Source of the DNA: Roseovarius bejariae
GTDB lineage: Bacteria > Pseudomonadota > Alphaproteobacteria > Rhodobacterales > Rhodobacteraceae
Assembly: GCF_009669325.1 (NCBI RefSeq)
Contig: NZ_SZWE01000001.1
Location: 62,402 to 126,401, forward strand
Length of the DNA: 64,000 bases
Direction: 5' to 3'
A program made the translations under genes and the position numbers. How positions within the stretch are numbered: position 1 is the stretch's first letter; every line of letters begins with the position of its first letter. The notes under the pieces are model-generated. The model worked only from the letters and a program-made list of their open reading frames with translations, was not told where the DNA came from and ran no database searches. This document shows, one piece after another, positions 44,569 through 64,000 of the stretch.

Positions 44569-45519
44569 TTACCCAAGTTTCGCCTTCTGCGCCGTTGGCG
44601 TGACGCCGTAAGCCCCTTTATAGACACGGGTGAAATGCCCCGTGGCCTCGAACCCGCAAGCACAGGCGATTTCGGTCACCGACATTTCGGTTTGCAACAG
44701 CAGGTGCCGCGCCCGTTCAAGCCGCAATTCCATAAAGTATTTCTTGGGCGAGGTATTGAGGTAGCGGCCAAAGAGCCGCTCCAATTGCCGGGTGGAAATG
44801 CCGATGTCTTCGGCAATGATCGAGGGCGAAATCGGGTCTTCGATATGGTCCTGCATCCGCGCGATGGCCTTGGTCAGATGCGGGTTGCGCATCCCGTTGC
44901 GCGATTGCAGCGATACGCGCTGTTCCGCCGTGGCCTCGCGCACCGCCGTATAAACCATCTGGTCGGCCACGGCGACGGCCAGATCGCGGCCATGATCACG
45001 CTCGATCAAATGCAGCATCAGGTCGGCGGTGGCCGAGCCACCCGAGGCCGTGATGTTCTTTTCGTCCGCCACAAAGACATTCCGCACCAGCGGAATTTCC
45101 GGGAACTCCTCCATGAAACTGTCATGGTAATCCCAGTGGATGGCGCATTTCTGTCCATTCAGAAACCCGGCCTTGGCAAGGATATATGCCCCCGAACACA
45201 GCGCGCCGATATTGGTGCCACGGGTGCGCTCACGGCGCAGCATCGCCAGAAGCGCAGGCGTGATCCGATTGCGCATTTGCAGCCCTGACAGGACAAACAG
45301 CCGGTCACAGCGCGGCAGGTTGTCCAATCCGTGATCGACCAATGTCACGGTCGCGTTCGATGCCCGCACGCTTTGCCCATCCTCGGCCCCGAGCGAAAAG
45401 GTATAAAGCTCTTCTCCCCGGATATGGTTGGCAATGCGCAATGGCTCGACCGCATTGGAAAAGGCCAGATGCGCGAAATCCTCAACGAGAATGAAGATGA
45501 AATGCTGGGTCTTTGTCAT
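44569..45519 (-). CDS. GlxA-family transcriptional regulator (DJ-1/PfpI plus AraC)
   Basis: 316 residues from the ATG at 45519. Residues about 5-190 are a class I glutamine amidotransferase-like domain (FIFILVEDFAHLAFSNAVEP, CDRLFVLSGLQ, TNIGALCSGAYILAKAGFLN with the nucleophile-elbow Cys, IHWDYHDSFMEEFPEI). Residues about 215-305 are an AraC helix-turn-helix (AEDIGISTRQLERLFGRYLN, SVTEIACACGFEATGHFTRV). GlxA-type regulators such as GbdR, CdhR and SouR control glycine betaine, carnitine and sarcosine use, which hints at an amine inducer. It is divergent from the GntR gene, with a palindromic operator between them. Confidence 0.92.
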   Translation of the reverse strand: MTKTQHFIFILVEDFAHLAFSNAVEPLRIANHIRGEELYTFSLGAEDGQSVRASNATVTLVDHGLDNLPRCDRLFVLSGLQMRNRITPALLAMLRRERTRGTNIGALCSGAYILAKAGFLNGQKCAIHWDYHDSFMEEFPEIPLVRNVFVADEKNITASGGSATADLMLHLIERDHGRDLAVAVADQMVYTAVREATAEQRVSLQSRNGMRNPHLTKAIARMQDHIEDPISPSIIAEDIGISTRQLERLFGRYLNTSPKKYFMELRLERARHLLLQTEMSVTEIACACGFEATGHFTRVYKGAYGVTPTAQKAKLG

Positions 45520-45539
45520 GCGGTGCATTTTTCCCGATT

Positions 45540-45556
45540 TACAAATTGTATGCAAT
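45540..45556. promoter_or_regulatory. Palindromic operator candidate between GlxA and GntR regulators
   Basis: TACAAATTGTA (45540-45550) is a perfect palindrome around one central base. It overlaps ATTGTATGCAAT (45545-45556), a near-perfect copy of the ATTGTATACAAT type bound by GntR/FCD regulators. It lies in the 85-bp divergent promoter region. Confidence 0.45.
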
Positions 45557-45604
45557 ATGTATTTTTTTACAAATACAAGATGACTCGAAACGACGGATCA
45601 CCAA

Positions 45605-46315
45605 ATGCCGGACACGACCAAGGACCGTAAATCGCATTTGCTGGATACGCTTAAACAGGCGATCCTGACGCAAGAGATGCGCCCTGGCGCCGATTTGGAC
45701 GAAGCGCAACTCTGCGAGGATTTCGCGCTGTCCCGGACCCCCCTGCGCGAGGTACTGCGCGAATTGGCCGGGCTGGGATATGTCGAGCTGCGCGCCAATC
45801 GGGGCGCGCGGGTTTCCGAGATGTCTCATACAACGCTGCGTGATTTCTTTCTGGCCGCGCCGATGATTTATGGTGCGATCCTGCGGTTGGCCGCGCACAA
45901 TGCCACGCCTGACCAGATCGAGGCCCTGAAGGCCGCGCAGGGACAATTCCGTGCCGCCTTGCGGACCGGATCGGGCACCGACCGGACCTTGGCCAATAAC
46001 CTGTTTCACGAGATCACCGGCGAAATGGCGGGCAATATTTATCTGCTGCCCTCGTTCCATCGGCTGTTGATTGATCACGCCCGGATCGGGGCCACGTTCT
46101 TTCGCCCGCAAACCGGCGAAATGGCCGAGAACCTCGACCGCGCCAGCCAACAACATGATGCCATCATCGCGGCCATCGAGGCCCGGGATGAGGTCGCGGC
46201 GGCGCAACTGGCCGAGGATCATTGGAACCTGTCGCGCCACCAATTCGAAATATTCGTGATGCCGGCGGGGATGGATCAACCGCTTGGCGCCCTGCCCCGT
46301 TCAACCCCAGCATAA
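45605..46315 (+). CDS. GntR-family regulator with FCD domain
   Basis: 236 residues. N-terminal winged helix-turn-helix (KSHLLDTLKQAILTQEMRPG, ADLDEAQLCEDFALSRTPLR, EVLRELAGLGYVELRANRGA). The C-terminal all-helical FCD ligand domain is residues about 80-225 (LRDFFLAAPMIYGAILRLAA, NNLFHEITGEMAGNIYLLPS, AQLAEDHWNLSRHQFEIFVM), with metal-binding-type His/Asp residues. It heads the catabolic block, with 16 bp to the DapA-like gene, so it probably senses a pathway metabolite and autoregulates the unit. Often such regulators repress until the inducer binds. Confidence 0.9.
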   Translation: MPDTTKDRKSHLLDTLKQAILTQEMRPGADLDEAQLCEDFALSRTPLREVLRELAGLGYVELRANRGARVSEMSHTTLRDFFLAAPMIYGAILRLAAHNATPDQIEALKAAQGQFRAALRTGSGTDRTLANNLFHEITGEMAGNIYLLPSFHRLLIDHARIGATFFRPQTGEMAENLDRASQQHDAIIAAIEARDEVAAAQLAEDHWNLSRHQFEIFVMPAGMDQPLGALPRSTPA

Positions 46316-46330
46316 GAAGGCTGCCCGCTT

Positions 46331-47248
46331 ATGACGCCAATCTTCAAGTTCGAGGGGATATATACCCCTGTCGTCACCCCCTATTTCGCCGATCATACCC
46401 CCGATCTGGACGCACTTGCCGATGTCATCGAGCATTTGATCGACAAGGGGGTCCATGGGCTTATCACCGGTGGCTCCACCGGCGAGAACTATGCCCAGAC
46501 CGTGGATGAGCGGATCGAGCTGGCCAAGTTCACCAAGGACCGGATCAAGGGCCGGGTGCCCATGGTCATGGGCACAGGCGCGATGCTGACCCCGGATTCG
46601 ATCGCCTTGGCGGAAGGGGCGCGCGAGGTGGGAGCCGATTGCATCCTGCTCGCCAGCCCCCCCTATTCGGTGCCGACGGATCGGGAAAACGCGCTCAATG
46701 CCCTGGCGATTGATCGCGCGGCTGACCTGCCGGTCATGCTTTACAACTACCCGCATCGCACCGGCACCATGATGGGCGAGGAATTTTTGGACCGTGTGGG
46801 GCGGAGCCGGAATTTTTGCGGCATCAAGGAAAGCTCGGGCGACATCAACCGGGTGCATCTTCTGGCGCGTGATTACCCGCATATCCAGATGGGATGCGGT
46901 ATGGATGACCAGGCGCTGGAATTCTTCGCCTGGGGGGCGCCCTTCTGGGTCTGTGGCGGGTCGAACTTCCTGCCCGAGGAACACGTGGCGCTTTACAACG
47001 CCTGTGTCATCGAGGGCGATTTCGTGAAAGGCCGCCGGATCATGTCGGCGCTGATGCCGCTGATGCGGGTCTTGGAACAGGGTGGCAAGTTCATCCAGAC
47101 CATCAAGCATGGCGTGACCATGGCGGGGATCGACACCGGCGCTGTGCGCCCGCCGCTGAAGCCGCTCAACAAGGACGACAAGCGCGCGTTGGAGCACGTC
47201 ACGCGCGTTCTCAAGACAACCATTGCAGATATCACCGCGGAGGGCTGA
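46331..47248 (+). CDS. Dihydrodipicolinate synthase/N-acetylneuraminate lyase family (DapA-like)
   Basis: 305-residue class I aldolase/lyase fold. Motifs: GLITGGSTGENYAQTVDERI (pyruvate-binding loop), VMLYNYPHRTGTMMGEEFLD with catalytic Tyr near 138, CGIKESSGDINRVH with the Schiff-base Lys near 166. Family members include KDG aldolase, trans-4-hydroxyproline pathway Pyr4H2C deaminase, and true DapA. The context (aldehyde dehydrogenase, FAD oxidase, ABC transporter) suggests a catabolic lyase rather than lysine synthesis. It is 3 bp before the aldehyde dehydrogenase. Substrate not determined. Confidence 0.9.
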   Translation: MTPIFKFEGIYTPVVTPYFADHTPDLDALADVIEHLIDKGVHGLITGGSTGENYAQTVDERIELAKFTKDRIKGRVPMVMGTGAMLTPDSIALAEGAREVGADCILLASPPYSVPTDRENALNALAIDRAADLPVMLYNYPHRTGTMMGEEFLDRVGRSRNFCGIKESSGDINRVHLLARDYPHIQMGCGMDDQALEFFAWGAPFWVCGGSNFLPEEHVALYNACVIEGDFVKGRRIMSALMPLMRVLEQGGKFIQTIKHGVTMAGIDTGAVRPPLKPLNKDDKRALEHVTRVLKTTIADITAEG

Positions 47249-47251
47249 GCC

Positions 47252-48748
47252 ATGGGTTTGCTGACCAAAGACGAATACAAGGCGATTGCCAAGGACCTGA
47301 CGCTGCCGACTTCGGCCTTCGTGGATGGCGGATACCGCGCGGCGGCCTCGGGCAAGACATTTACCAGTATAAACCCGGCCACGGGCGAGGAATTGGCCCA
47401 GATCGCGGGCTGCGGGGCCGAGGATGTGGATTTCGCCGTGCTCAAGGCCCGCGAAGCCTTCGACGATGGCCGCTGGTCCAAGATGCACCCGAGCGAGCGT
47501 AAGGATGTCCTGATCCGGCTGTGCAAACTGATGACGCGCAATTCACGTGAATTGTCGGTGATGGAAAGCCTCGACAGCGGCAAGACCATTTTCGATTGCG
47601 AAACCGTGGACATCCCCGAGACCATCCACGCCATCAAGTGGCACGCCGAAGCCATCGACAAGATCAACGACGAAGTGGCCCCGGCCAGCGACGATCACAT
47701 CGCCATGGTGGTGCGCGAGCCCATCGGCGTTGTCGGCCTTGTCCTGCCGTGGAACTTCCCACTGCTGATGCTGGCGTGGAAGATCGGCCCCGCACTGGCT
47801 GCAGGCTGTTCGGTGGTGGTGAAGCCCGCCGCCGAAACAACCCTGACCGCCCTGCGCGTGGCCGAGCTTGCCAGCGAGGCGGGCCTGCCCAAGGGTGTGC
47901 TGAACGTGATCCCGGGCGGCGGCGCCGAGGTGGGTGAACCGCTGGGCCGTCATATGGATGTCGATATGGTCAGCTTCACCGGTTCCACCGTGACCGGCAA
48001 GCGCTTCCTGACCTATTCGGCGGAAAGCAACGCCAAGGAGGTCGTTCTGGAAATGGGCGGCAAGAACCCTGCCGTCGTCATGGACGACGCCGAGAACCTC
48101 GACCGCGTCGCGGCGCATATCGTCAACGGGGCGTTCTGGAACATGGGCGAAAACTGCTCGGCCACCTCGCGGTTGATCGTACACAAGGACGTCAAGGACG
48201 AGCTTCTGAAACGGATCGAGGCGCACGCCCGCGAATGGGTGGTCGGTGATCCGATGGACCCGGAAACCCGGGTTGGCGCACTGGTCAGCGAAACCCATTA
48301 CAACAAGGTCTGCGGCTATCTGGACAAGGCCGAAAACATCGTTCTGGGCGGCAAGGCCGACAAGGGTTTTGTCGAGCCGACCGTGGTGGACGTGGCGAGC
48401 AACGACGACACCCTGGCGCGCGAGGAAATCTTCGGCCCGGTTCTGTCGGTCATCGAAGTCTCCAGCTTTGACGAGGCCATCTCGGTCGCCAATGACACCG
48501 ACTATGGGCTTTGCGCCTCGATCTTCACGGCCAATGCGAAACGCGCCATTCGCGGCGCGCGGATGCTGCGGGCGGGCACCGTCACGGTCAACAGCTTTGG
48601 CGAGGGGGACATCTCGACCCCCTTCGGCGGCTACAAGCAATCGGGCTTTGGCGGGCGCGACAACAGCCTGCACGCCCATGACCAGTACACCCAGCTCAAG
48701 ACCATATGGCTTGATCTGGCCGACGACGAAGACGAGGCGGTAAGCTGA
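47252..48748 (+). CDS. NAD(P)-dependent aldehyde dehydrogenase (PuuC-like)
   Basis: 498 residues. VVGLVLPWNFPLLMLAWKIG, PALAAGCSVVVKPAAETTLT, VSFTGSTVTGKRFLTYS, EMGGKNPAVVMDDAENLDRV (general base Glu), WNMGENCSATSRLI (catalytic Cys), EEIFGPVLSVIEVSSFDEA and STPFGGYKQSGFGGRDNSLH are all intact. The residues near the N-terminus and the KTIWLDL ending resemble E. coli PuuC, the gamma-glutamyl-aminobutyraldehyde dehydrogenase. It could oxidise an omega-amino or semialdehyde intermediate to an acid. Its stop overlaps the next gene's ATG by one base. Confidence 0.92.
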   Translation: MGLLTKDEYKAIAKDLTLPTSAFVDGGYRAAASGKTFTSINPATGEELAQIAGCGAEDVDFAVLKAREAFDDGRWSKMHPSERKDVLIRLCKLMTRNSRELSVMESLDSGKTIFDCETVDIPETIHAIKWHAEAIDKINDEVAPASDDHIAMVVREPIGVVGLVLPWNFPLLMLAWKIGPALAAGCSVVVKPAAETTLTALRVAELASEAGLPKGVLNVIPGGGAEVGEPLGRHMDVDMVSFTGSTVTGKRFLTYSAESNAKEVVLEMGGKNPAVVMDDAENLDRVAAHIVNGAFWNMGENCSATSRLIVHKDVKDELLKRIEAHAREWVVGDPMDPETRVGALVSETHYNKVCGYLDKAENIVLGGKADKGFVEPTVVDVASNDDTLAREEIFGPVLSVIEVSSFDEAISVANDTDYGLCASIFTANAKRAIRGARMLRAGTVTVNSFGEGDISTPFGGYKQSGFGGRDNSLHAHDQYTQLKTIWLDLADDEDEAVS

Positions 48749-49506
48749 TGAATATCGGGTTTCTGGGAACCGGCGGAATCGCCGCACCGATGGTCGAGGC
48801 GCTTGCAGGCAAGGGGCATGACATCCTTGTCTCCGAGCGCAGCGCCGAGGTGTCGGCGCGCCTTGCGGCCCAGTTTGCCGAGGTTGAGATCGCCCCGAAT
48901 GATCGCGTCGTTGCCGACAGCGAGGTGATCATCGCCTGCCTCATGGCCGATGTGGCGCCAAAGGTGCTTCCCGATCTGCCGTTTCGCGAGGGGCAAAAAC
49001 TCATCTCGGTCATGGTCGATGTCTCGGTGGAGGCCCTGCACGATCTGGCGGCCCCCGTCACTGACATCTCCGTGACGATCCCGATGCCCTTCATCGGCAA
49101 GGGGGGCTGCCCCCTGCCCGTCTATCCCGACACGGGCAGTGTTCAGGCCCTCTTTGGGGCCGAGAACATCGTGCTGCCCGTTACCAGCGAAGCCGCCCTC
49201 AACGCGCATTTCGCGGCCTCGGCGCTGTCCTCGGTCGTTCTGGCCGAGATGGTGACAACCGCAGACTGGCTTGCGGGTGTCACCGGCGGTGCGGCCAAGG
49301 CCGAAGCCTATGTCGCGGCCCTGATCGCGGGATACTTCAAGGGCATGGCCCTTGATGGCTCGGGGGAAGTCAAAGGCTTGCTGGACGCACTTTCGACCGA
49401 AGGCGGGCTGAATGCCACGCTGCGCGACCGTATGGCCGGGGCACGCAACGAATTAACCGAAGGGCTGGATGCCTTTCGCCCAAGACTTGGATTGCCCGAC
49501 GCATGA
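48748..49506 (+). CDS. NAD(P)-binding reductase, ProC-like
   Basis: 252 residues. The Rossmann N-terminus MNIGFLGTGGIAAPMVEALA, DILVSERSAEVSARLAAQFA, IACLMADVAPKVLPDLPF is followed by a helical C-terminus (GGAAKAEAYVAALIAGYFKG, DALSTEGGLNATLRDRMAGA). The EGGLNATLRD motif is like the dimerisation domain of pyrroline-5-carboxylate reductase, and the N-terminus is like F420/NADP or 6-phosphogluconate-type enzymes. A cyclic imine or hydroxyacid substrate is plausible; it is not assigned. The flanking overlaps (1 base and ATGA) show tight coupling with the neighbours. Confidence 0.75.
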   Translation: MNIGFLGTGGIAAPMVEALAGKGHDILVSERSAEVSARLAAQFAEVEIAPNDRVVADSEVIIACLMADVAPKVLPDLPFREGQKLISVMVDVSVEALHDLAAPVTDISVTIPMPFIGKGGCPLPVYPDTGSVQALFGAENIVLPVTSEAALNAHFAASALSSVVLAEMVTTADWLAGVTGGAAKAEAYVAALIAGYFKGMALDGSGEVKGLLDALSTEGGLNATLRDRMAGARNELTEGLDAFRPRLGLPDA

Positions 49507-50846
49507 CACAAGGCTTCATCGCCCAGCACCTTCCGCTACACCGTGGCCCTGCCGGGTGGTCTTCGATCTTGCCGGGCCAAGAGCCTGCACAGGTCCTGGA
49601 GACGGATACCACCGCCGACGTCGTGGTGATTGGTGCGGGTTTTGCAGGGATGGCCGCGGCGCGGCGTCTGACACAGCTTGATCCGCAAGCCAAGGTCGTG
49701 GTGCTTGAGGCAAGCCGCCTGGCCGAAGGCGCCTCGGGGCGCAACACCGGCTTCATGATCGACCTGCCGCATGAACTGACCTCGGAAGATTACGCTGGGG
49801 CTGGCGATGACCGGGCGATTATCACCCTCAACCGCCAAGCCCAGGCCTTTGCCCGCGCAGCGGTAGAGGACTACAGGATTTCGCCGGACTATTTCGATCA
49901 GGCGGGCAAGGTGAACGGCGCGGTCAGCGATGCGGCCCATGCCCATAACGAAAGCTATGCCAGACACCTGGCCGAACTGGGTGAGCAAAGCGAGGCCCTG
50001 GATACACAGGCCATGCGCGAGCTGACCGGCAGTGGATACTATCAATCCGGCCTTTATACCCCCGGAACGGTGATGTTGCAGCCTGCCGGTTACATTCGCG
50101 GCATGGCGCAGGGCCTGCGCCGCGATGGGGTGAAGATCTACGAACAAAGCCCGGTTCAAAGCATCACGCCCAAGACTGGCGATTGGCAGCTTGCGACGCC
50201 CAAGGGCAAGGTCACGGCGCATCGCGTGATCCTGACGGTGAACGGCCATCTGGAAAGCTTCGGGGTGGACCGCGGGCGGCTGATGCAGCTTTTCCTGTTC
50301 GCCACCATGACACCCGAGCTTGCGCCCGATGAGGTCAAGGCTCTGGGTGGGGCCGCGCGCTGGGGTGTCACGCCGTCCGACCCCATGGGCACCACGATGC
50401 GCCGTATCGACACCGGACAGGGCGGCAACCGGATCGTCACCCGCACCTGCGCGGTGCTGCGCCCCGGAATGGCGGCGCGCAAGGCCGATGTGGCCCGCGC
50501 GGCCCGCGTCATGCAGGGCAAGTTCGAGGCCCGGTTCCCGCAGTTCAAAGGCATGCGGATGGAACACACCTGGGCCGGGCACCTCTGCCTGAGCCTCAAC
50601 GGTGTGTCCGTGATGCGAAAAATCGAGGATGGGCTGTTCTCGGGCTGTGTGCAAAACGGCCTCGGCACCGCGCGCGGCACGCTCACCGGCATGGGTGCGG
50701 CGGAACTGGCCTGTGGGCAAACCTCTGAAATCACGTCACATTTCGGAGATGAAGACGGCCCCAAACGTCTTCCGCCACAGCCCTTTCGCGAATGGGGTGC
50801 CAATGCTGTCCTGCGCTGGAAAGAGCATAAAGCGCGCCAGGAATAG
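49503..50846 (+). CDS. FAD-dependent amine/amino acid oxidoreductase (DAO family, PuuB-like)
   Basis: 447 residues. ADVVVIGAGFAGMAAARRLT is the GxGxxG nucleotide loop; VVVLEASRLAEGASGRNTGF has the ribose-binding Glu and flavin motif; GTARGTLTGMGAAELACG is the C-terminal FAD contact. It belongs to the DAO family beside gamma-glutamylputrescine oxidase and D-amino acid oxidases. It probably oxidises an amine or imino acid to an imine, feeding the ProC-like and DapA-like partners. It shares motifs with the truncated gene at 2-1111, but not enough to call a duplicate. Confidence 0.9.
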   Translation: MTQGFIAQHLPLHRGPAGWSSILPGQEPAQVLETDTTADVVVIGAGFAGMAAARRLTQLDPQAKVVVLEASRLAEGASGRNTGFMIDLPHELTSEDYAGAGDDRAIITLNRQAQAFARAAVEDYRISPDYFDQAGKVNGAVSDAAHAHNESYARHLAELGEQSEALDTQAMRELTGSGYYQSGLYTPGTVMLQPAGYIRGMAQGLRRDGVKIYEQSPVQSITPKTGDWQLATPKGKVTAHRVILTVNGHLESFGVDRGRLMQLFLFATMTPELAPDEVKALGGAARWGVTPSDPMGTTMRRIDTGQGGNRIVTRTCAVLRPGMAARKADVARAARVMQGKFEARFPQFKGMRMEHTWAGHLCLSLNGVSVMRKIEDGLFSGCVQNGLGTARGTLTGMGAAELACGQTSEITSHFGDEDGPKRLPPQPFREWGANAVLRWKEHKARQE

Positions 50847-50999
50847 CCCGCCAAACAATCGCCTTGCCGCCACGTCATAGGGTGAGCTTGAACAGAAGTG
50901 TGCGCACCAGCTTGCCTGTTAGCGCAAAACATTTAAGCTGCTTGTCAGAGTCACGTTCAAAGTGACCACCGAACAATTGGATCACTGGGAGATATGATC

Positions 51000-52577
51000 A
51001 TGAAAGTAGTTGGCGCACTGACCGCCTTGCTCTTGGCGAGCACGACGCTCTCGGCCTCGGCCGAAACGCTGCGTTGGGCGCGCGCGGGCGATTCACTCAC
51101 CCTCGACCCCCACGCACAAAACGAGGGGCCGACCCATACGCTGGCCCACCAGATGTATGAGCCGCTGATCATCCGCGACCATTCCGGCGCGATGCAGGGC
51201 GCATTGGCCACCGAATGGGCCCCCAAGGCGGATGACCCCACGGTTTGGGTCTTTACCCTGCGGGAAGGGGTGAAATACCATGACGGTGCCGATTTCACCG
51301 CCGAGGACGTGGTGTTCTCGATCAACCGCGCGAAATCCGAAGATTCGGACATGAAGGAACTGCTCACTTCGATTTCCGAAGTGCGTGCTGTCGATGACTA
51401 TACCGTGGAATTCGTCACCGACGGACCCAACCCCATTCTGCCCTCGAACCTCACGAACCTGTTCATGATGGACAAAGGCTGGGCCGAGGCGAATGACGTG
51501 GTGAAGGTGCAGGACATCGAAGGCGGCGAGAAAACCTTTGCCTCGACCAACACCAACGGCACCGGGCCCTTCAAGCTGATCAGCCGCGAACCGGACGTGA
51601 AAACCGTTCTGACCGCCAATGAAAACTACTGGGGCAAGGACGAGTTTCCGCTGGATGTGACCGAGATCGTCTATACGCCCATCCAGAACGCCGCAACGCG
51701 GGTTGCCGCGCTGTTGTCGGGCGAGGTGGACTTTATTCAGGACGTTCCGGTGCAAGACCTTGGCCGCGTGGCCGAAACCGAAGGTCTGGTCGTCAAGACC
51801 GCCCCGCAGAACCGGGTGATTTTCTTCGGTCTCAATCAAGGTGCGGATGACATTGCCAATGACGACGTAGACGGCGCCAACCCGCTGGCCGATGTCCGCG
51901 TCCGGCAGGCCATGTCGATGGCCATCAACCGCGATGCCATCAAGCAGGTGGTCATGCGCGGCCAAAGCCAACCGGCGGGCATGATCGCGCCGCCCTTCGT
52001 CAACGGCTGGACCGCCGAGATGGATGGTGCCTCGAAAACCGATGTGGACGCCGCCAAGGCGCTGATGGCAGAAGCCGGGTACGAAGATGGCTTCTCGATC
52101 CAGCTGGATTGCCCGAACGACCGCTACGTCAACGACGAGGCGATCTGTCAGGCCGCCGTGGGGATGCTGGCGCAGATCGGCGTCAAGGTGAACCTCGATG
52201 CCAAGCCCAAGGCGCAGCACTTCCCGCTGATCACCAACAATCAGACGGATTTCTACATGCTGGGCTGGGGCGTTCCGACCTACGATTCGGAATATATCTT
52301 CAACTTCCTCGTTCACAGCCGCACCGACGAGCGCGGAAGCTGGAACGGAACCGGTTTCTCGAACGCCGATGTGGACGACATGATCGCCAGCCTCGCGTCC
52401 GAAACCGATCTGGACAAGCGCAACGCGACGATCCAATCGATCTGGAACGTGGTGCAGGAAGAACAGCTTTACATCCCGATCCACCACCAGGTTCTGAACT
52501 GGGGCATGTCCAACAAGGTCGGCACCGAGGTCAGCCCCGAGGACGACCCGAAAATCAAGTTCTTCACCATGAACTGA
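51000..52577 (+). CDS. Peptide-type ABC transporter periplasmic binding protein (family 5)
   Basis: About 525 residues. The signal peptide MKVVGALTALLLASTTLSAS ends AETL. The mature SBP_bac_5 protein has LRWARAGDSLTLDPHAQNEG, LATEWAPKADDPTVWVFTLR, GVKYHDGADFTAEDVVFSIN, ADVRVRQAMSMAINRDAIKQ and IPIHHQVLNWGMSNKVGT. The second ATG (51000) is used because it gives the better spacing after GGGAGAT. It could bind a peptide, a betaine-like or another cationic amine. A strong hairpin follows the stop, so expression is probably higher than that of the permeases. Confidence 0.92.
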   Translation: MKVVGALTALLLASTTLSASAETLRWARAGDSLTLDPHAQNEGPTHTLAHQMYEPLIIRDHSGAMQGALATEWAPKADDPTVWVFTLREGVKYHDGADFTAEDVVFSINRAKSEDSDMKELLTSISEVRAVDDYTVEFVTDGPNPILPSNLTNLFMMDKGWAEANDVVKVQDIEGGEKTFASTNTNGTGPFKLISREPDVKTVLTANENYWGKDEFPLDVTEIVYTPIQNAATRVAALLSGEVDFIQDVPVQDLGRVAETEGLVVKTAPQNRVIFFGLNQGADDIANDDVDGANPLADVRVRQAMSMAINRDAIKQVVMRGQSQPAGMIAPPFVNGWTAEMDGASKTDVDAAKALMAEAGYEDGFSIQLDCPNDRYVNDEAICQAAVGMLAQIGVKVNLDAKPKAQHFPLITNNQTDFYMLGWGVPTYDSEYIFNFLVHSRTDERGSWNGTGFSNADVDDMIASLASETDLDKRNATIQSIWNVVQEEQLYIPIHHQVLNWGMSNKVGTEVSPEDDPKIKFFTMN

Positions 52578-52614
52578 TGCACGTGGGGCCGCCCGACACG
52601 GCGGCCCTGCCCCA

Positions 52615-52640
52615 CCGCGCCCTTTTACGAGGGCGCGGTT
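52615..52640 (+). terminator. Attenuating hairpin after the binding-protein gene
   Basis: ACCGCGCCCT (52615-52624) pairs with AGGGCGCGGT (52631-52640), loop TTTACG. TTCC follows. As in the other ABC operon (17473), it lies between binding protein and permease genes. Confidence 0.6.
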
Positions 52641-52664
52641 TCCTGACGTGACCGGGGGATCGTC

Positions 52665-53654
52665 ATGCTTGCCTATATCATACGCCGCGTCTTCCAATCG
52701 GCCCTCGTGCTGCTGGTCGTCGGACTGGTGGCCTTTTCCATGTTCAGCTTCGTGGGCGACCCCGTCGACAACATGCTGGGACAGGAACGCACGCAGGCCG
52801 ATATCGAACGCCTGCGCTCGGATCTGGGCCTCGATCAACCCTTCCCGGTGCAATACTGGCGGTTTCTCGAACAGGCCGTACAGGGCAATTTCGGCCTGAG
52901 CTATCGCCAGGGCCGCCCGGTTTCGGAAATCCTGATGGAGCGTCTGCCCGCCACGCTGGAACTGGCCTTTGTCTCGGGCGTTCTGGCCCTTCTGGGCGGC
53001 ATCGGGTTTGGCATTTTCACCGCCATCCGAAAACGCGGGGTCGCGGCCAATACCATCATGACGCTCTCCCTCATCGGGGTCTCTTTGCCGACCTTCCTGA
53101 TCGGCGTCCTGCTGATTTACCTGTTTTCCGTCGAACTGGGCTGGCTGCCCAGCTTCGGGCGCGGCGATGTCACCCGCATCGGCGATTGGTGGACCACCGG
53201 GTTCCTGACGGAAAGCGGCCTCAAGGCCCTGATCCTGCCCGCCATCACGCTGGGTCTCTACCAGATGACCCTGATCATGCGTCTGGTGCGAACCGAGATG
53301 CTCGAAGTCCTGCGCAGCGATTACATCCGCTTCGCCCGCGCACGCGGCCTGCGCGACCGCTCGGTCCACTTCCGGCACGCCCTGAAAAACACCCTCGTTC
53401 CGGTGATCACCATCACGGGCCTTCAACTGGGCTCGATCATCGCCTTCGCCATCATCACCGAAACCGTGTTCCAATGGCCCGGTGTGGGGCTGCTTTTCAT
53501 CAACGCGATCCAGTTCGTCGATATTCCGGTCATGGCCGCCTACCTGATGATGATCTCGGTCATGTTCGTGGGCATCAACCTGATCGTCGACCTGCTCTAT
53601 TTCGCCATTGATCCACGCCTGCGCGTGGATCGCAGCGCGGGGAAAACCGCATGA
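52665..53654 (+). CDS. Peptide-type ABC transporter permease (DppB type)
   Basis: 329 residues, six predicted membrane helices. It begins MLAYIIRRVFQSALVLLVVG, the classical DppB N-terminus. The EAA-type loop is RSDYIRFARARGLRDRSVHF followed by RHALKNTLVPVITITGLQLG. The last helix is MAAYLMMISVMFVGINLIVD. It overlaps the next permease by ATGA. It forms the channel of the importer with the following gene. Confidence 0.93.
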   Translation: MLAYIIRRVFQSALVLLVVGLVAFSMFSFVGDPVDNMLGQERTQADIERLRSDLGLDQPFPVQYWRFLEQAVQGNFGLSYRQGRPVSEILMERLPATLELAFVSGVLALLGGIGFGIFTAIRKRGVAANTIMTLSLIGVSLPTFLIGVLLIYLFSVELGWLPSFGRGDVTRIGDWWTTGFLTESGLKALILPAITLGLYQMTLIMRLVRTEMLEVLRSDYIRFARARGLRDRSVHFRHALKNTLVPVITITGLQLGSIIAFAIITETVFQWPGVGLLFINAIQFVDIPVMAAYLMMISVMFVGINLIVDLLYFAIDPRLRVDRSAGKTA

Positions 53655-54610
53655 CCGATACCGCCCCCCCCATCCCGCCAACGCCCGAACGCGCACCCAG
53701 CCGCCTGTCCCGCGCATGGCAAAGCGATTTTCTTTATTCCTTCCGCCGCGCGCCGGTGGCCGTGGTGTCATTCTGCGTGGTGCTGACGCTTGTGCTTTGC
53801 GCGGTCTTCGCGCCGCTTGTCGCTCCGCATGATCCTTTTGATCCCGCCACCCTCAACCTGATGAACGGGTTTACCCCCCCGGGCGAGGCGAACGCCTTTA
53901 CCGGCGATACATTCCTTCTTGGCACCGATGACCAAGGCCGCGACGTGTTTTCCACCATCCTTTACGGGATGCGGATTTCGCTGTTCGTGGGCTTCTCGGC
54001 TGTTCTGCTGGCCATGGTGCTTGGCGTGGTTCTCGGGCTTTTGGCGGGCTACTCCGGCGGCTGGACCGAAACCATCATCATGCGGGTGGCGGATGTGCAA
54101 CTGACCTTCCCCGCCATCCTCGTGGCGATGCTGATCTTCGGGATCGCCAAGGGCATCACCCCGCCCGAATACCGCGACCAGATGGCAATCTGGGTGCTGA
54201 TCCTTGCCATCGGCCTCAGCGACTGGGTGCAATTCGCCCGCGTGGTGCGCGGGGCCACCCTGGTTGAGAAGAACAAGGAATACGTGCAGGCCGCGCGCCT
54301 TGTGGGGCGCAAGCCGCTGTCGATCATGCTGCGCCATATCCTGCCCAATGTCCTCAACCCGGTGCTGGTCATCGCCACGATTTCGCTGGCCCTTGCGATC
54401 ATCGCCGAGGCGACGCTCTCGTTTCTTGGCGTCGGCGCACCGCCAACCAAGCCTTCGCTCGGGACTCTGATCCGCATCGGGCAGGAGTTCATGTTCTCCG
54501 GCGAATGGTGGATTTTGGTCTTCCCCGCCGCGACCCTTCTGGCGCTGGCGCTGTCGATCAACCTCCTGGGCGACTGGCTGCGCGATGCGCTGAACCCGAG
54601 GCTGCGGTAA
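53651..54610 (+). CDS. Peptide-type ABC transporter permease (DppC type)
   Basis: 319 residues. A proline-rich N-terminal tail (PPIPPTPERAPSRLS) precedes the first helix (VAVVSFCVVLTLVLCAVFAP). The DppC landmarks are LGTDDQGRDVFSTILYGMRI, the EAA loop YVQAARLVGRKPLSIMLRHI and a final NLLGDWLRDALNPRLR. Its stop (TAA) overlaps the next gene's ATG by one base. Confidence 0.93.
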   Translation: MTDTAPPIPPTPERAPSRLSRAWQSDFLYSFRRAPVAVVSFCVVLTLVLCAVFAPLVAPHDPFDPATLNLMNGFTPPGEANAFTGDTFLLGTDDQGRDVFSTILYGMRISLFVGFSAVLLAMVLGVVLGLLAGYSGGWTETIIMRVADVQLTFPAILVAMLIFGIAKGITPPEYRDQMAIWVLILAIGLSDWVQFARVVRGATLVEKNKEYVQAARLVGRKPLSIMLRHILPNVLNPVLVIATISLALAIIAEATLSFLGVGAPPTKPSLGTLIRIGQEFMFSGEWWILVFPAATLLALALSINLLGDWLRDALNPRLR

Positions 54611-55623
54611 TGAAAGGCCCCGAGATGGACAAAGCCCCCGTACTCTCCGTCCGCGATCTGGTGGTGGAAATCCCCACCCGGCACGGTGTCCTGCGCCCGG
54701 TGGACCGGGTGAGCTATGACATCCACGCCGGGGAAATCCTTGGCGTGGTGGGCGAATCCGGCGCCGGCAAGTCGATGACCGGCAACGCGGTGATCGGCCT
54801 TCTGGACCCGCCCGCACATATCACCCATGGCGAAATCCTGCTGTCGGGCCAGCCGATTCACAACATCAAGCGCGAGGCCCTGCGCAAACTGCGCGGCAAG
54901 AAAATGGGGATGATCTTTCAGGACCCGCTAACCTCGCTCAACCCGCTTCTGACCATCGGCGACCAACTGACCGAAACGATCCTCGAACATCTGGGCGTCA
55001 CGCAATCCGAAGCCCGCGAACGCGCCATCGCCGCACTGGAAGAGGTGGGCATCCCCGCCGCCCGCGACCGCATCGGCAGCTACCCGCACGAGTTTTCCGG
55101 CGGTATGCGGCAACGCGTGGTGATCGCGTTGGCGCTTTGCGCCGAACCCGACCTGATCATCGCAGACGAACCGACCACGGCCCTCGACGTCAGCGTTCAG
55201 GCGCAGATCGTGGCGCTTCTCAAGCGGCTCTGCCGCGAACGCGGCGTGGCGGTGATGCTGGTCACCCACGACATGGGCGTGATTGCCGAGGCCGCCGACC
55301 GCGTGGCGGTGATGTATGCCGGGCGGCTGGCCGAACTCGGCCCGGTGCGCGAGGTCATCACCCAGGCCCGTCACCCCTATACCGCCGGTCTCATGGCCTC
55401 CACCCCCATGGCGAGCCAAGGGGCAAAACGCCTGCGGCAAATCCCCGGCGCCATGCCACGCCTTGGCGCGCTGCCGCATGGCTGCGCCTTCCACCCACGG
55501 TGTGACCGCGCCACCGCCGAATGCCGCGCCGACCCGCCACCACGGATCGACTATTGCGATGGGCGCGCGGCCTGTTGGCACCCCCTGTCCCACGAAAAGA
55601 CCACCAAGGGAGAGCCCGCATGA
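54610..55623 (+). CDS. Peptide-type ABC transporter ATPase (DppD type)
   Basis: 337 residues. Walker A GESGAGKSMTGNAVIG, Q-loop GMIFQDPLTSLNPLLT, signature FSGGMRQRVVIALALCAEPD, Walker B LIIADEPTTALDVSVQAQ, H-loop LVTHDMGVIAEAADRVAV. The C-terminal oligopeptide-type domain has a Cys cluster (HGCAFHPRCDRATAECRADP), often binding an Fe-S cluster or structural. The start is ATG 54610 or 54625 (MDKAPVLSV). Next gene overlaps by ATGA. Confidence 0.93.
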   Translation: MKGPEMDKAPVLSVRDLVVEIPTRHGVLRPVDRVSYDIHAGEILGVVGESGAGKSMTGNAVIGLLDPPAHITHGEILLSGQPIHNIKREALRKLRGKKMGMIFQDPLTSLNPLLTIGDQLTETILEHLGVTQSEARERAIAALEEVGIPAARDRIGSYPHEFSGGMRQRVVIALALCAEPDLIIADEPTTALDVSVQAQIVALLKRLCRERGVAVMLVTHDMGVIAEAADRVAVMYAGRLAELGPVREVITQARHPYTAGLMASTPMASQGAKRLRQIPGAMPRLGALPHGCAFHPRCDRATAECRADPPPRIDYCDGRAACWHPLSHEKTTKGEPA

Positions 55624-56585
55624 GCGCGCTGATTTCCATCAAGGCCCTGACCCGGGTGTTCGATGTCTCGAAACCATGGCTCAACCGGGTGCTGGAACGC
55701 CGCGACAAGGCCTATCTCACCGCCGTCTCCGAGGTCAGCTTCGATGTCGAGGACAAGACCGTTTATGCGCTGGTCGGCGAAAGCGGCTCGGGCAAATCCA
55801 CCATCGGCAAGATCGTGGTGGGCCTGCTTCCGGCCAGCGATGGCAACGTCGAGATCGACGGCGTCGATCTGGCCACCGAGACCGACCCGGCCAAGGTATC
55901 CGAGGTGCGCGCCGAAGTGCAGATGATCTTCCAGGATCCCTACGCCTCGCTCAACCCGCGCTGGCGGGTGCGCGAGATCATCAACGAACCCGTGGCGGCA
56001 CGCGGCGGCAAAACCGAAGGCTTGGCCGAACGCCTGCTGGAACAGGTTGGCCTGTCGGCCAAGGACGCGGGCAAATTCCCGCACGAGTTTTCCGGCGGGC
56101 AACGCCAACGCATCTGCATCGCCCGCGCGCTGGCATCCAACCCGCGGATCATCGTCTGCGACGAACCCACCTCGGCACTGGATGTCTCAGTGCAAAGCCA
56201 AGTCCTCAACCTGATGTCGGATTTGCAGGAGGAGATGGGCCTGACCTATCTCTTCATCAGTCACGACCTGACCGTGGTGCACCACATGGCCGATGTCATC
56301 GGGGTGCTTTACCTTGGCCGCCTTGTCGAAGAAGCGCCGCGGGACGGGCTCTTTGCCGACCCCAAACACCCTTACACCCAGATGCTCTTCGATGCCGCCC
56401 CGCGTATGGATGGCTTCGGTCGTGAAGTGGACCCGCCCAAGGGCGAAATCCCCGATCCGATCAACCCACCACCGGGCTGTGCTTTCCACCCCAGGTGCCC
56501 ACTGGCCGTGGACCGCTGCAAGAAAGAGCGCCCCGAGATGCGCCAAATTGGCGAGACCCGCGTCGCCTGCCACCTGGCCGAATGA
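55620..56585 (+). CDS. Peptide-type ABC transporter ATPase (DppF type)
   Basis: 321 residues. Walker A GESGSGKSTIGKIVVG, Q-loop MIFQDPYASLNPRWRVR, signature FSGGQRQRICIARALASNPR, Walker B IIVCDEPTSALDVSVQSQ, H-loop FISHDLTVVHHMADVIGV. The C-terminal motif is PPPGCAFHPRCPLAVDRCKK. The set of five genes (51000-56585) is therefore a complete importer. It is the last gene of the block on this strand and is followed by the palindromic repeat. Confidence 0.93.
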   Translation: MSALISIKALTRVFDVSKPWLNRVLERRDKAYLTAVSEVSFDVEDKTVYALVGESGSGKSTIGKIVVGLLPASDGNVEIDGVDLATETDPAKVSEVRAEVQMIFQDPYASLNPRWRVREIINEPVAARGGKTEGLAERLLEQVGLSAKDAGKFPHEFSGGQRQRICIARALASNPRIIVCDEPTSALDVSVQSQVLNLMSDLQEEMGLTYLFISHDLTVVHHMADVIGVLYLGRLVEEAPRDGLFADPKHPYTQMLFDAAPRMDGFGREVDPPKGEIPDPINPPPGCAFHPRCPLAVDRCKKERPEMRQIGETRVACHLAE

Positions 56586-56622
56586 TCCCAACCGTCAGCA
56601 CCCGGCCTTGCTGTCGGATGCC

Positions 56623-56719
56623 TCCGGCGGGGGTATTTTCGCCAAGAAAAAACCCATAGCACGCCGCCGGTTTTTTCTTGGTCCAAATACCCCGGGGAGT
56701 TTGAGGGGCAGCGCCCCTC
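56623..56719. repeat. Intergenic palindromic repeat (full element)
   Basis: GGGGGTATTTTCGCCAAGAA (from 56629) pairs with the inverted copy TTCTTGGTCCAAATACCCC (to about 56693). A 15-base loop lies between the arms. It is followed by GAGGGGCAGCGCCCCTC (56703-56719), a second hairpin. The same structure occurs at 61229-61335, and a half copy at 9982. It divides the ABC operon from the convergent mttB-like gene, probably acting as a terminator. Confidence 0.8.
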
Positions 56720-56754
56720 ATTCCAAATCATGAGGCGTGGCGCAGCCACTCCGC

Positions 56755-58311
56755 TTAGTAATTCTGGTTCAACTCGTCCGCTGCCGGAATGTCCCGCTCG
56801 CGCCGCGCGATGTAATCCAGAAGGGCCTCGTCCTTGGCTTCGTCCAGTTTCGGCTCCTGGTACTCCGACAAGAGCTTGCGGGCGTAGTTGAGCGCGCGCT
56901 CGGTGATCTCGACGCTGCCTTCAGCCACCCATTGCTCGATCGAGTTGTTATCGAAAAGCTCCGGCATGAAGAACGCCGTCTGGAAGTTCTCCTGCGTGTG
57001 CGGGTGACCAAGGTAATGCCCCCCGGGTCCCACGTCCGGCACTGCCGCCACGGCCTGATCGAAGTCACCCCAATCGACACCGCGCGCCATCTTGTGGGCC
57101 ATGGCGCATTGTTCGGCGTCCACCACGAATTTCGCGGTCGAACAATGCATTCCCGCCTCGTTCCACCCGGCCGAATGCCAGATATAGTTGGCCCCGGCAT
57201 GGATGACCGATTGCAGGTTGGTGCCACTTTCATACCCCGCCTGCGCATCGAAAGTCTTGGCCCCGCCAAGCGTGTTCGAGGTACGCCACGGAATGCCATA
57301 GAACCGTGCCATCTGGCCGATCATGAAGTTCATCAGGCTGATCTCGGGCGTGCCCGCCATGGGCGCACCGGATTTCATGCTGACGGTCGACAGGTAATGC
57401 CCATAGATCGCCGGGGCCCCTTTGCGGATCACTTGGCTGTAGGCCAGCGCCGACAGCGCCTCGGCGTTCAATTGCGCCACGGTGGCCGGAACCGACGCGG
57501 GCGTATTCGCCCCGCCCAGCACGAAGGGCGAGCACAGCACAGGCTGCTTGCGCTTGCAAAAGGCGCGCATCGCGCCCAGCATGGTTTCGTCCCAGACCAG
57601 CGGCGAGTTGCCGTTGCAGTTGCCGGTGGTCACCGGGTGATCTTCAAGGAAATCCTCGCCGAACAGAATGGCGCACATCTCCATGACATCCTCGGCGTTC
57701 TTCGGGCTGGTGGTCATGCCCATGAAGGTCTTGTCCGAGTGTTTCATCGACGAATAGGTAATCCGCAGGTGCCTCTGGCTGATCGGGTGATCATAGGGTT
57801 CCACGATATGGTGGGCCGAGCTGTGCAGACCGGGCAGCATATGGCTCAGCTTGTGGAACATCGCCAGATCGTCCAGCGTGGGATTGCGGCGCACATCGTC
57901 CAGATCGCGCAGGAAGGGCGCGCCGGTCATCGGCACGAAGATCGAATGCGGCCCGCCAAGCGCCACGTTCTTCATGGGATCGCGCGCATGGTAGGTGAAG
58001 GTTTCGGGAATGGTCGAGATCAACTCGCGCACAAGGCCACGGTCGAGGTACACCAATTCCCCCACGACCTTGGCGCCGATACGCGTCCAGTCTTCCAGGG
58101 CGATGGGATCGCGGAACTGCACGCCCACGTTTTCAAGAATGTCCATCGAGGCCGCGTCGATGCGCTCCACCTGCGCACCATCCATCACCTCGCAGACCGG
58201 GATACCGCGCGTCAGGCCCGGCAGCATATCGTGCTTGGGGGCGGTACGCAGGGCCCGGCGGGCGGAACGGCCACCGGAACGACTGCGGGTTTTGCGCTCT
58301 TCAACGATCAT
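56755..58311 (-). CDS. MttB-family (trimethylamine methyltransferase-like) protein without pyrrolysine
   Basis: 518 residues, TIM barrel-like. Family motifs: GIPVCEVMDGAQVERIDAAS, MDILENVGVQFRDPIALEDW, MTGAPFLRDLDDVRRNPTLD, GANTPASVPATVAQLNAEAL, PISLMNFMIGQMARFYGIP-type sequence, and GPGGHYLGHPHTQENFQTAF. No in-frame TAG is present, so this is the non-pyrrolysine (MtgB-like) clade; some members demethylate glycine betaine, proline betaine or carnitine with a corrinoid protein. No corrinoid protein or MtgA lies in the window. It is convergent with the transporter, and it probably acts on the imported compound. The ATG at 58311 gives the family N-terminus. Confidence 0.88.
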   Translation of the reverse strand: MIVEERKTRSRSGGRSARRALRTAPKHDMLPGLTRGIPVCEVMDGAQVERIDAASMDILENVGVQFRDPIALEDWTRIGAKVVGELVYLDRGLVRELISTIPETFTYHARDPMKNVALGGPHSIFVPMTGAPFLRDLDDVRRNPTLDDLAMFHKLSHMLPGLHSSAHHIVEPYDHPISQRHLRITYSSMKHSDKTFMGMTTSPKNAEDVMEMCAILFGEDFLEDHPVTTGNCNGNSPLVWDETMLGAMRAFCKRKQPVLCSPFVLGGANTPASVPATVAQLNAEALSALAYSQVIRKGAPAIYGHYLSTVSMKSGAPMAGTPEISLMNFMIGQMARFYGIPWRTSNTLGGAKTFDAQAGYESGTNLQSVIHAGANYIWHSAGWNEAGMHCSTAKFVVDAEQCAMAHKMARGVDWGDFDQAVAAVPDVGPGGHYLGHPHTQENFQTAFFMPELFDNNSIEQWVAEGSVEITERALNYARKLLSEYQEPKLDEAKDEALLDYIARRERDIPAADELNQNY

Positions 58312-61071: not shown

Positions 61072-61228
61072 GGCGCAATGCGCCCTGATCCGCCGGATTC
61101 GGGCAAAAAATTCCCTTTGACCCGGATGAGCACGGCCAAGCCCGCGCACAGGTCGACGCGCCCTGCCCCCTATGCTTGGCGGAGGGGCCGACCTTTCGGC
61201 GTCGCACGACTTGGCCAATCGGGGCCTC

Positions 61229-61335
61229 CGGCGGGGATATTTGGAAAAAGAAGAAAATGCCGCCTATTGTTCTTCTTTTCACAAATATCCCGGGGGAGTC
61301 GCCCACAGGGCGACGGGGGCAGCGCCCCCACCCGG
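61229..61335. repeat. Intergenic palindromic repeat (full element)
   Basis: GGGGATATTTGGAAAAAGAA (from 61232) is an imperfect inverted copy of TTCTTCTTTTCACAAATATC (to about 61290). Two further hairpins follow: GTCGCCC/GGGCGAC (61299-61315) and GGGGGCAGCGCCCCC (61316-61330). It lies downstream of the ABC ATPase gene on the minus strand, so it may end that transcript. Confidence 0.75.
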
Positions 61336-61342
61336 CATCGGG

Positions 61343-62431: not shown

Positions 62432-62521
62432 GTGGGTTGCCTCTTGGTCTTTCCGATTGATTTAATCGGGTTTGCTCAAGGGCAGATAGCAACCCCACAG
62501 GCCCCGCGCAAGGTGGCGCGA

Positions 62522-63889: not shown

Positions 63890-64000
63890 GGGATGGGACC
63901 TTCGATAAAAACCTTTGGTCCCGCCGGGGTAGCAAGCGCGCCGGGGCCTGCCTAGCGCGCTTGTCTCAATTGACGCGAACGTGACGCGCCGTGAGCTTAG

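What the first reader, a model, noticed from the sequence alone, without database searches (positions are those of the whole stretch)
44569..58311. Undescribed-looking amine/betaine catabolic island with its own transporter and two regulators
A GlxA-type and a GntR/FCD-type regulator diverge over a palindromic operator. They are followed by DapA-like lyase, PuuC-like aldehyde dehydrogenase, ProC-like reductase, DAO oxidase, a five-gene peptide-type importer and a convergent MttB-family methyltransferase. All catalytic genes are overlapping or within a few bases. The mix (methyl removal, amine oxidation, cyclic imine reduction, lyase, semialdehyde oxidation) resembles pathways for hydroxyproline betaine or related betaines, but lacks the usual racemase and Rieske demethylase, so it may be a new variant. 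Substrate assignment is inference.
Basis: partly seen in the sequence, partly recalled or inferred. Interest (0 to 1): 0.7.

Follow-up and report, generated by a model that had tools for sequence, protein, structure and literature searches.

The report
B12-linked hydroxyproline-betaine breakdown gene island
A gene set found in many relatives of the roseobacters looks like a route for eating hydroxyproline betaine, a salt-stress compound, with a vitamin-B12-dependent enzyme doing a step that the known route gives to an oxygen-using iron enzyme.

Summary
In detail: two divergent regulators, then DapA-like, aldehyde dehydrogenase, ProC-like and DAO genes in tight order, a five-gene Opp-type importer and a convergent MttB-family gene. 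The core recurs. In 198 same-family genomes, 53 have the DAO, 53 the MttB ortholog and 49 both, within 12 kb in 44. In 23 of 53 fetched loci MttB stands on DAO's strand, before it. Relatives add genes that point at the substrate: glycine betaine/proline importers, an HpbD-type betaine epimerase or, in rhizobia, 4-hydroxyproline epimerase. Best reading: catabolism of 4-hydroxyproline betaine, with a corrinoid-dependent MttB in place of the Rieske demethylase of the known route. The genome holds one stand-alone corrinoid protein and one RACo-type protein. The importer is not part of the conserved module: among loci examined it is linked only here and in two congeners. Weak points: this genome shows no HpbD or 4-hydroxyproline epimerase, HpbD is in 6 of 53 loci, and the DapA-like lyase is far from the S. 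meliloti hyp-region homolog. Substrate and reaction order stay inferred. New variant of a known kind.

The parts
44569..45528 (-). GlxA/GbdR-type AraC-family regulator (ORF opens at 45555 TTG; ATG at 45528 or 45519)
   Evidence: Pfam DJ-1_PfpI + HTH_18; NCBIfam GbdR 316 bits, under its 480 cut-off; start codons
45546..45577 (.). palindromic operator-like sequence: TTGTATGCAA (45546-45555) and TGTATTT/AAATACA (45558-45577)
   Evidence: motif upstream of GntR in 19 of 55 loci against 6 of 1080 random stretches
45605..46315 (+). GntR/FCD regulator
   Evidence: Pfam GntR + FCD; found in 43 of 53 family loci
46331..47248 (+). DapA-family lyase, catabolic subfamily (proposed cyclic-imine/hydroxy-acid lyase)
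   Evidence: DHDPS 187 bits; under the dapA cut-off (177.1 of 206.15); Schiff-base Lys and Tyr positions kept in 105 of 105 copies examined
47252..48748 (+). aldehyde dehydrogenase (PuuC/BADH-like; proposed semialdehyde dehydrogenase)
   Evidence: Aldedh 540 bits; PuuC 525 of 850 cut-off
48748..49506 (+). ProC-like NAD(P) reductase (accessory)
   Evidence: PRK06476 150 of 254 cut-off; a ProC-like gene in 17 of 103 core loci
49503..50846 (+). FAD-dependent DAO-family amine oxidase
   Evidence: DAO 138.5 bits; AlphaFold model pLDDT 89.9, closest folds glycine oxidase, L-proline dehydrogenase, sarcosine oxidase
50994..52577 (+). family-5 solute-binding protein of the Opp-type importer (not part of the conserved module)
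   Evidence: SBP_bac_5 302 bits
52665..53654 (+). importer permease 1
   Evidence: BPD_transp_1
53651..54610 (+). importer permease 2
   Evidence: BPD_transp_1 + OppC_N
54505..55623 (+). importer ATPase 1 (ORF limits; true start probably inside)
   Evidence: ABC_tran + oligo_HPY
55620..56585 (+). importer ATPase 2 (ORF open from 55521)
   Evidence: DppF/OppF-type ATPase; ATG at 55620
56755..58311 (-). MttB-superfamily methyltransferase without pyrrolysine (proposed hydroxyproline-betaine:corrinoid methyltransferase)
   Evidence: PF06253 700.8 bits, no stop inside; the 26 module copies in a 33-row tree form one clade, 100/99 support; co-occurrence with DAO in 49 genomes, of 53 with each

Best explanation
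The island encodes catabolism of a cyclic amino-acid betaine, most likely 4-hydroxyproline betaine (betonicine/turicine type), with a cobalamin-dependent first step. Inferred steps: (1) MttB moves one methyl group from the quaternary nitrogen to the genome's single stand-alone corrinoid protein, which is kept active by the RACo-type protein and passes the methyl to folate; (2) the DAO flavoenzyme oxidises the resulting N-methyl-4-hydroxyproline to a cyclic imine; (3) the DapA-family enzyme opens, dehydrates and deaminates it to alpha-ketoglutarate semialdehyde; (4) the aldehyde dehydrogenase makes alpha-ketoglutarate. The ProC-like reductase and, in relatives, HpbD, 4-hydroxyproline epimerase or an SDR pair adjust stereochemistry or recycle imines. 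The GntR/FCD protein probably acts on TTGTRYRCAA and the GlxA/GbdR-type protein as a betaine-sensing activator. Shown here: gene content, linkage, co-occurrence and MttB phylogeny. Inferred: substrate, order of steps, products, regulation.
For: DAO and MttB orthologs co-occur (49 genomes, of 53 with each, in 198; p 9e-37, not corrected for relatedness; 44 of 49 within 12 kb). MttB lies on DAO's strand and before it in 23 of 53 loci. The 26 module MttBs in a 33-row tree are one clade, 100/99. Of 12 genomes with HpbD (E 1e-110 or better), 11 have both DAO and MttB (p 2e-6); HpbD stands beside MttB in C. sphaeroides 2.4.1, and that protein matches 4e8g at E 3e-201 and 4h2h at 1e-156; 5 of 120 listed homologs are named 4-hydroxyproline betaine 2-epimerase. 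Glycine betaine/proline ABC genes adjoin the core in 6 of the 8 plasmid loci (39-43, 45). In R. etli, A. tumefaciens LMG 292 and A. vitis the core runs into a glycine betaine ABC system and 4-hydroxyproline epimerase; in R. etli a Rieske/reductase pair adjoins. DAO + DHDPS-family + ALDH is the gene set of the known lower hydroxyproline pathway (PMC4113996, passages). Corrinoid protein, RACo, two pterin-binding proteins.
Against: This genome shows no HpbD at E 1e-70, and its one proline-racemase-family protein scores as trans-3-hydroxyproline dehydratase, so a D-specific oxidase would lack its epimerase. HpbD is in only 6 of 53 family loci; in 5 of the 11 genomes that have it with DAO it lies away from DAO (coordinates). 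The DapA-like protein is 27% identical to the DapA homolog in the S. meliloti pSymB hyp region and keeps an Arg (DHDPS Arg138 equivalent) in 105 of 105 copies that the S. meliloti protein lacks. ALDH scores far under the alpha-ketoglutarate semialdehyde dehydrogenase model (355 of 770). One oxidase must cover either the second demethylation or the ring oxidation. The island's importer is Opp-type; two of the eight plasmid loci also lack a betaine ABC system. Four DAO genomes lack the MttB ortholog and four MttB genomes lack the DAO.
Confidence: 0.55

Rival explanations
1. Same substrate, other chemistry: DAO oxidises the ring at C5 (as L-pipecolate oxidase does at C6), the ring opens to a 4-hydroxyglutamate semialdehyde, ALDH makes (N-methyl-)4-hydroxyglutamate, and after nitrogen removal the DapA-like enzyme cleaves 4-hydroxy-2-oxoglutarate to pyruvate and glyoxylate. 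ProC would reduce the C5 imine.
For: Best NCBIfam match of DAO is AmaA L-pipecolate oxidase (124 bits, cut-off 600); ProC-like gene in 17 of 103 core loci; DapA keeps the DHDPS distal-carboxylate Arg in 105 of 105 copies; plasmid records tag DapA homologs with the GO term glyoxylate catabolic process.
Against: 4-hydroxyproline epimerase in the rhizobial operons makes a D-isomer, which fits C2 oxidation; no gene for nitrogen removal from 4-hydroxyglutamate is seen in the core; the GO term is an automatic (IEA) annotation.
Confidence: 0.17
2. The substrate is another quaternary amine, such as proline betaine or a further amino-acid betaine, and the DapA-like enzyme performs a different retro-aldol or lyase step.
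For: A proline betaine racemase belongs to the same enolase subclass as hydroxyproline betaine 2-epimerase (PMC5144071, passage); MttB superfamily members have distinct substrates including proline betaine (PMC8604678, passages); the catabolic enzymes fall under every NCBIfam cut-off listed for them.
Against: Proline betaine needs no DapA-family step in the routes I know (recalled); 4-hydroxyproline epimerase and proline-racemase-family genes adjoin the core in relatives.
Confidence: 0.17
3. Oligopeptide or hydroxyproline-peptide scavenging: the Opp-type importer defines the island, and MttB is an unrelated neighbour.
For: Window, L154 and L155 share the importer (SBP 92-93%, permeases 97-98% identical).
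Against: MttB goes with DAO and the importer does not: 44 linked pairs against one linked importer in 198 genomes (12-kb limit); stand-alone importer loci L166-L169 share no neighbours and lack the core.
Confidence: 0.04
4. The module is the published homarine (N-methylpicolinate) operon under another name.
For: Homarine is a marine N-methylated compound with a conserved catabolic pathway in environmental bacteria (title in the reference list of PMC13390433).
Against: The passage I could read says Mgd takes part in it, and no sarcosine-oxidase-like mgd set was seen in the window's island; HpbD and 4-hydroxyproline epimerase do not fit an aromatic substrate. The paper itself is not held, so its gene list was not checked.
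Confidence: 0.05

Closest known systems
[quoted passage not shown] papers not held, content recalled, cited in passages of PMC4113996 and PMC5144071)
   Same: DAO-family oxidase, DHDPS-family lyase and aldehyde dehydrogenase; an enzyme of the HpbD family sits in the cluster of some relatives; betaine importers adjoin in some
   Different: MttB instead of a Rieske-type demethylase; no HpbD or 4-hydroxyproline epimerase found in this genome; lyase far from the S. meliloti hyp-region DapA homolog
MtgBCD glycine betaine demethylation in Ruegeria pomeroyi (PMC12478193, passages read)
   Same: aerobic, PF06253 protein with a stand-alone corrinoid protein and folate acceptor in a roseobacter
   Different: tied to DAO/DapA/ALDH and not to glycine betaine steps; the nearest own paralog is 43% identical; the R. 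pomeroyi proteins themselves were not compared
MtpB, proline betaine methyltransferase of Eubacterium limosum (PMC8604678 passages)
   Same: MttB member acting on a cyclic betaine; several MttB members share one corrinoid protein
   Different: anaerobic acetogen; sequence not compared here
Rhizobial core with 4-hydroxyproline epimerase (R. etli p42f, A. tumefaciens LMG 292, A. vitis)
   Same: GntR-DapA-ALDH-DAO order; R. etli and A. vitis enzymes 44-65% identical
   Different: no MttB in the stretches shown; glycine betaine ABC and 4-hydroxyproline epimerase in the operon; Rieske pair beside it in R. etli only

Membership tests
Hydroxyproline-betaine catabolic pathway (tHypB) | DAO-family oxidase + DHDPS-family lyase + aldehyde dehydrogenase together | tested here: met
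   DapA and ALDH adjacent in 52 of 53 DAO loci
Hydroxyproline-betaine catabolic pathway (tHypB) | HpbD betaine 2-epimerase | tested here: not met
   no match at E 1e-70 in G000; 14 of 198 genomes match at that level
Hydroxyproline-betaine catabolic pathway (tHypB) | 4-hydroxyproline epimerase | tested here: not met
   one Pro_racemase-family protein in G000, over the T3LHypDht cut-off
Hydroxyproline-betaine catabolic pathway (tHypB) | Rieske-type N-demethylase in the cluster | tested here: not met
   none among the island genes or the flanking genes scanned; a GbcA-like Rieske gene lies at C1:234 kb
Hydroxyproline-betaine catabolic pathway (tHypB) | growth on the betaine | not testable with these tools
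   needs culture
MttB superfamily, non-pyrrolysine | PF06253 over cut-off, no in-frame amber | tested here: met
   700.8 bits, cut-off 25, no stop inside
MttB superfamily, non-pyrrolysine | stand-alone corrinoid protein and reductive activase in the genome | tested here: met
   one B12-binding_2 protein, one RACo_C_ter protein
MttB superfamily, non-pyrrolysine | methyl transfer from a quaternary amine to Co(I) | not testable with these tools
   needs enzyme assay
Pyr4H2C deaminase (HypH type) | Schiff-base Lys and Tyr of the DHDPS family | tested here: met
   105 of 105 copies
Pyr4H2C deaminase (HypH type) | close relation to the DapA homolog of the S. meliloti pSymB hyp region (its identity as HypH is recalled) | tested here: not met
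   27% identity, distal Arg differs
DHDPS proper (DapA) | TIGR00674 over cut-off | tested here: not met
   177.1 of 206.15 bits; a second DapA homolog, 29% identical, at C1:1598035
Pyrroline-5-carboxylate reductase | PRK06476 or TIGR00112 over cut-off | tested here: not met
   150.1 of 254 and 25.7 of 196.75 bits
Alpha-ketoglutarate semialdehyde dehydrogenase | NF042993 over cut-off | tested here: not met
   355 of 770 bits; PuuC and BADH also under cut-off

The most novel reading that the evidence does not exclude
A whole clade of aerobic MttB proteins, present in about a quarter of the family's genera sampled (53 of 198 genomes) and in gammaproteobacterial MAGs, is a cobalamin-dependent hydroxyproline-betaine demethylase that replaces the oxygen-dependent Rieske enzyme at the top of the pathway, so that turnover of this osmolyte by these bacteria depends on vitamin B12.
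Probability: 0.5. Interest if true: 0.65.

Novelty: new variant of a known kind. Interest (0 to 1): 0.5.

Why it matters
Hydroxyproline betaine and betonicine are reported in marine samples (PMC11965087 and PMC10579395, passages). If the reading is true, the module gives a genetic marker for bacterial use of them, assigns a function to one clade of aerobic MttB proteins, and ties another osmolyte to B12 supply, as is proposed for glycine betaine (PMC12478193, passages). It would also show two unrelated demethylases, MttB and Rieske, alternating on one conserved lower pathway.

Tried and rejected
Automatic ORF calling and clustering undercounted the genes (DapA 46, MttB 40 of 54 loci) and left cluster 5 unnamed; it turned out to be a pair of SDR genes. 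The tblastn counts replace it.

Importer as substrate clue: rejected, as its orthologs are mostly unlinked to the core and four stand-alone copies have no shared neighbours. Its co-occurrence with DAO genomes (22 of 47, p 5e-4) is kept as an open point.

Own-genome racemase candidates: the one proline-racemase-family protein scores as t3Hyp dehydratase. Five MLE-type proteins were found, none an HpbD at E 1e-70. The nearest, in L108, is 38% identical to HpbD and fits 4mgg better than 4e8g (275.6 against 216.9 bits).

The AlphaFold model of an HpbD homolog was poor (pLDDT 58.5); its searches were used only for entry titles, which are cut before the ligand name. That these entries are HpbD is recalled.

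The homarine rival could not be settled: the paper is not held. Paper searches run: (all 10). Searches asked most directly for MttB with (hydroxy)proline betaine; one search listed nothing and none of the 8 papers listed shows, by title and abstract start, such a link. Only an open-licence library was searched.

Rows dropped and limits: for the five weakest of 58 DAO genomes (E 4.6e-80 to 6.9e-31) and two of 14 HpbD genomes (E about 1e-72) were left out. The 53 fetched family loci come from 52 genomes (one, L089, is a second copy, 40% identical, without the other core genes). In the whole-genome protein searches only part of the first-look candidates was scored in many genomes, so absences can be misses. 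Of 55 congeners with the DAO, loci of 12 were fetched. L050 and L091 share identical HpbD and SDR proteins.


Full report
What is there. The window is C1:62402-126401 of a 3.5 Mb genome in three contigs. Three contigs of its genus fetched here have the lengths of contigs of named Roseovarius records (380395, 304579 and 288256 bases), so the source is probably a Roseovarius-like roseobacter (inference). Flanks are IF-3 and a methyltransferase before, DUF815-TatC-TatB after.

Does the set recur? A search of 198 same-family genomes, all of different genera, found the DAO in 58 at E 1e-30; I kept the 53 with E 4.4e-121 or better. The MttB ortholog is in 53 of 198. Both are in 49; Fisher p 9e-37, which ignores relatedness; in 44 of the 49 they lie within 12 kb. 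Four genomes have DAO without MttB and four MttB without DAO; of the latter, one MttB locus shows GntR-DapA-ALDH and another GntR, so part of the lack may be contig ends or misses. Of 53 loci fetched around DAO (52 genomes), tblastn finds DAO in 53, ALDH 52, DapA 52, MttB 43, GntR 43, GlxA 21, an SDR pair 15, HpbD 6, ProC 6, and ProX/ProW/ProV 3/3/4. DapA, ALDH, DAO and MttB are together in 43. MttB is on the strand opposite to DAO in 19 and on the same strand in 24, in 23 of these before DAO. So MttB is most likely a working part of the module. A tree of 33 MttB proteins puts the 26 module copies in one clade (100/99), apart from the five other copies of this genome and two further copies of relatives; long branches make the placing of the outer rows unsure. 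The clade includes Granulosicoccaceae and Chromatiales MAGs.

What do the relatives add? In C. sphaeroides 2.4.1 plasmid pB the cluster holds ProXWV, two SDRs, an enolase-superfamily protein and MttB. That protein matches the P. denitrificans structure 4e8g at E 3e-201 and P. bermudensis 4h2h at 1e-156; I recall these as HpbD, hydroxyproline/proline betaine 2-epimerase. The titles seen name the organisms but are cut before the ligand. Five of 120 listed homologs are named 4-hydroxyproline betaine 2-epimerase by JGI, and a passage in PMC5144071 places this activity in this enolase subclass. HpbD at E 1e-110 or better is in 12 of 198 genomes; 11 of these have DAO and MttB (p 2e-6), but it lies in the DAO locus in 6 of them. 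Betaine ABC genes adjoin the core in 6 of 8 plasmid loci: P. denitrificans PD1222, C. sphaeroides (40), S. meliloti AK57 (41), A. tumefaciens LN-1 (42), Peteryoungia (43, with two proline-racemase-family genes) and P. inhibens M633 (45, with MttB). Pseudosulfitobacter has a TRAP importer instead (44) and Leisingera none in the stretch shown (46). In A. tumefaciens LMG 292, R. etli CFN 42 and A. vitis the core is followed by a four-gene glycine betaine ABC system and 4-hydroxyproline epimerase; in R. etli a Rieske oxygenase and its reductase lie beside it, in the other two no such pair is annotated. R. etli and A. vitis DapA, ALDH and DAO are 59, 65 and 44-45% identical to the window's.

MttB or Rieske. 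Among 103 loci with DAO plus DapA or ALDH (some species may be counted twice), MttB is in 68. The R. etli-type Rieske is in 2 and 4-hydroxyproline epimerase in 5, all among the 35 loci without MttB. HpbD is in 14 (12 with MttB) and a betaine binding protein in 15 (5 with MttB). In Amphritea (L202) the Rieske and reductase flank the core. Of the 35 MttB-free loci, 23 show none of these marks, and five of them belong to genomes whose MttB lies elsewhere or farther off (G020, G055, G078, G163, G178; L051 of G178 does show a betaine binding protein). So the alternation is a pattern and not a rule.

Against it. No HpbD and no 4-hydroxyproline epimerase was found in G000. Either the oxidase here takes the L-form, or the substrate is already D-configured, or the epimerase is unrecognised. 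The DapA-like protein is 27% identical to the DapA homolog in the S. meliloti pSymB hyp region. All 105 copies examined keep an Arg at the DHDPS Arg138 position, which that protein lacks (residue roles recalled). This leaves room for the C5 route ending in pyruvate and glyoxylate. The four catabolic enzymes score under the cut-offs of all NCBIfam models listed for them.

Transporter. The importer is linked to the core in the window and in two of 12 congener loci fetched (L154, L155). Its binding protein has orthologs of 60% identity or more in 47 of 198 genomes, 22 of which have the DAO (p 5e-4), but only the window's lies within 12 kb and one more within 25 kb. It was probably recruited in this lineage; what it carries is unknown.

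Regulation. The gap between the regulators holds TTGTATGCAA (45546-45555) and a 7-bp inverted repeat (45558-45577). TTGTRYRCAA occurs upstream of GntR in 19 of 55 loci against 6 of 1080 random stretches, so it is a plausible GntR operator; 36 of 55 lack that exact form. The GlxA-type protein is nearest to GbdR (316 of 480 bits), a choline-metabolism regulator.

Literature. Ten searches of the open-licence library were run; by title and abstract start no listed paper ties MttB to hydroxyproline betaine. The primary papers on the known pathway and the 2026 homarine paper are not held. Novelty is therefore rated as a new variant of a known kind, not higher.

Noticed in passing
G000 C1:233.9-241 kb (L108:3940-10998): GbcA-like Rieske gene, a DMGDH/GcvT-like 825-aa protein, an enolase-superfamily protein nearest to the cis-3-hydroxyproline dehydratase model (under its cut-off) and a class III aminotransferase stand together: perhaps a second hydroxyproline- or betaine-type cluster.
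   Followed up: partly
G000 C2:38.6-42.1 kb (L106:6596-10103): trans-3-hydroxyproline dehydratase (over the NCBIfam cut-off) beside a nitroreductase and an SHMT-like protein, an unusual set of neighbours.
   Followed up: no
G000, six places: Six MttB-superfamily genes but one stand-alone corrinoid protein and one RACo protein, which suggests several quaternary-amine demethylases sharing one corrinoid carrier.
   Followed up: partly
L038, L040, L041, L043, L050, L053, L060, L064-L066, L068, L074, L077, L084, L086: Two adjacent SDR genes, about 40% alike, stand with MttB and DAO in 15 of 53 loci. They could invert the C4 hydroxyl by oxidation and reduction.
   Followed up: no
L202 (Amphritea atlantica), L206 (Pseudomonas gingeri): The core also occurs in gammaproteobacteria: with a Rieske/reductase pair in Amphritea and with 4-hydroxyproline epimerase and betaine ABC genes in P. 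gingeri.
   Followed up: partly
window 61172-63955: A 927-aa open reading frame with no Pfam match at E 1e-5; long ORFs also run on the other strand there, so it is not sure which is the gene.
   Followed up: no
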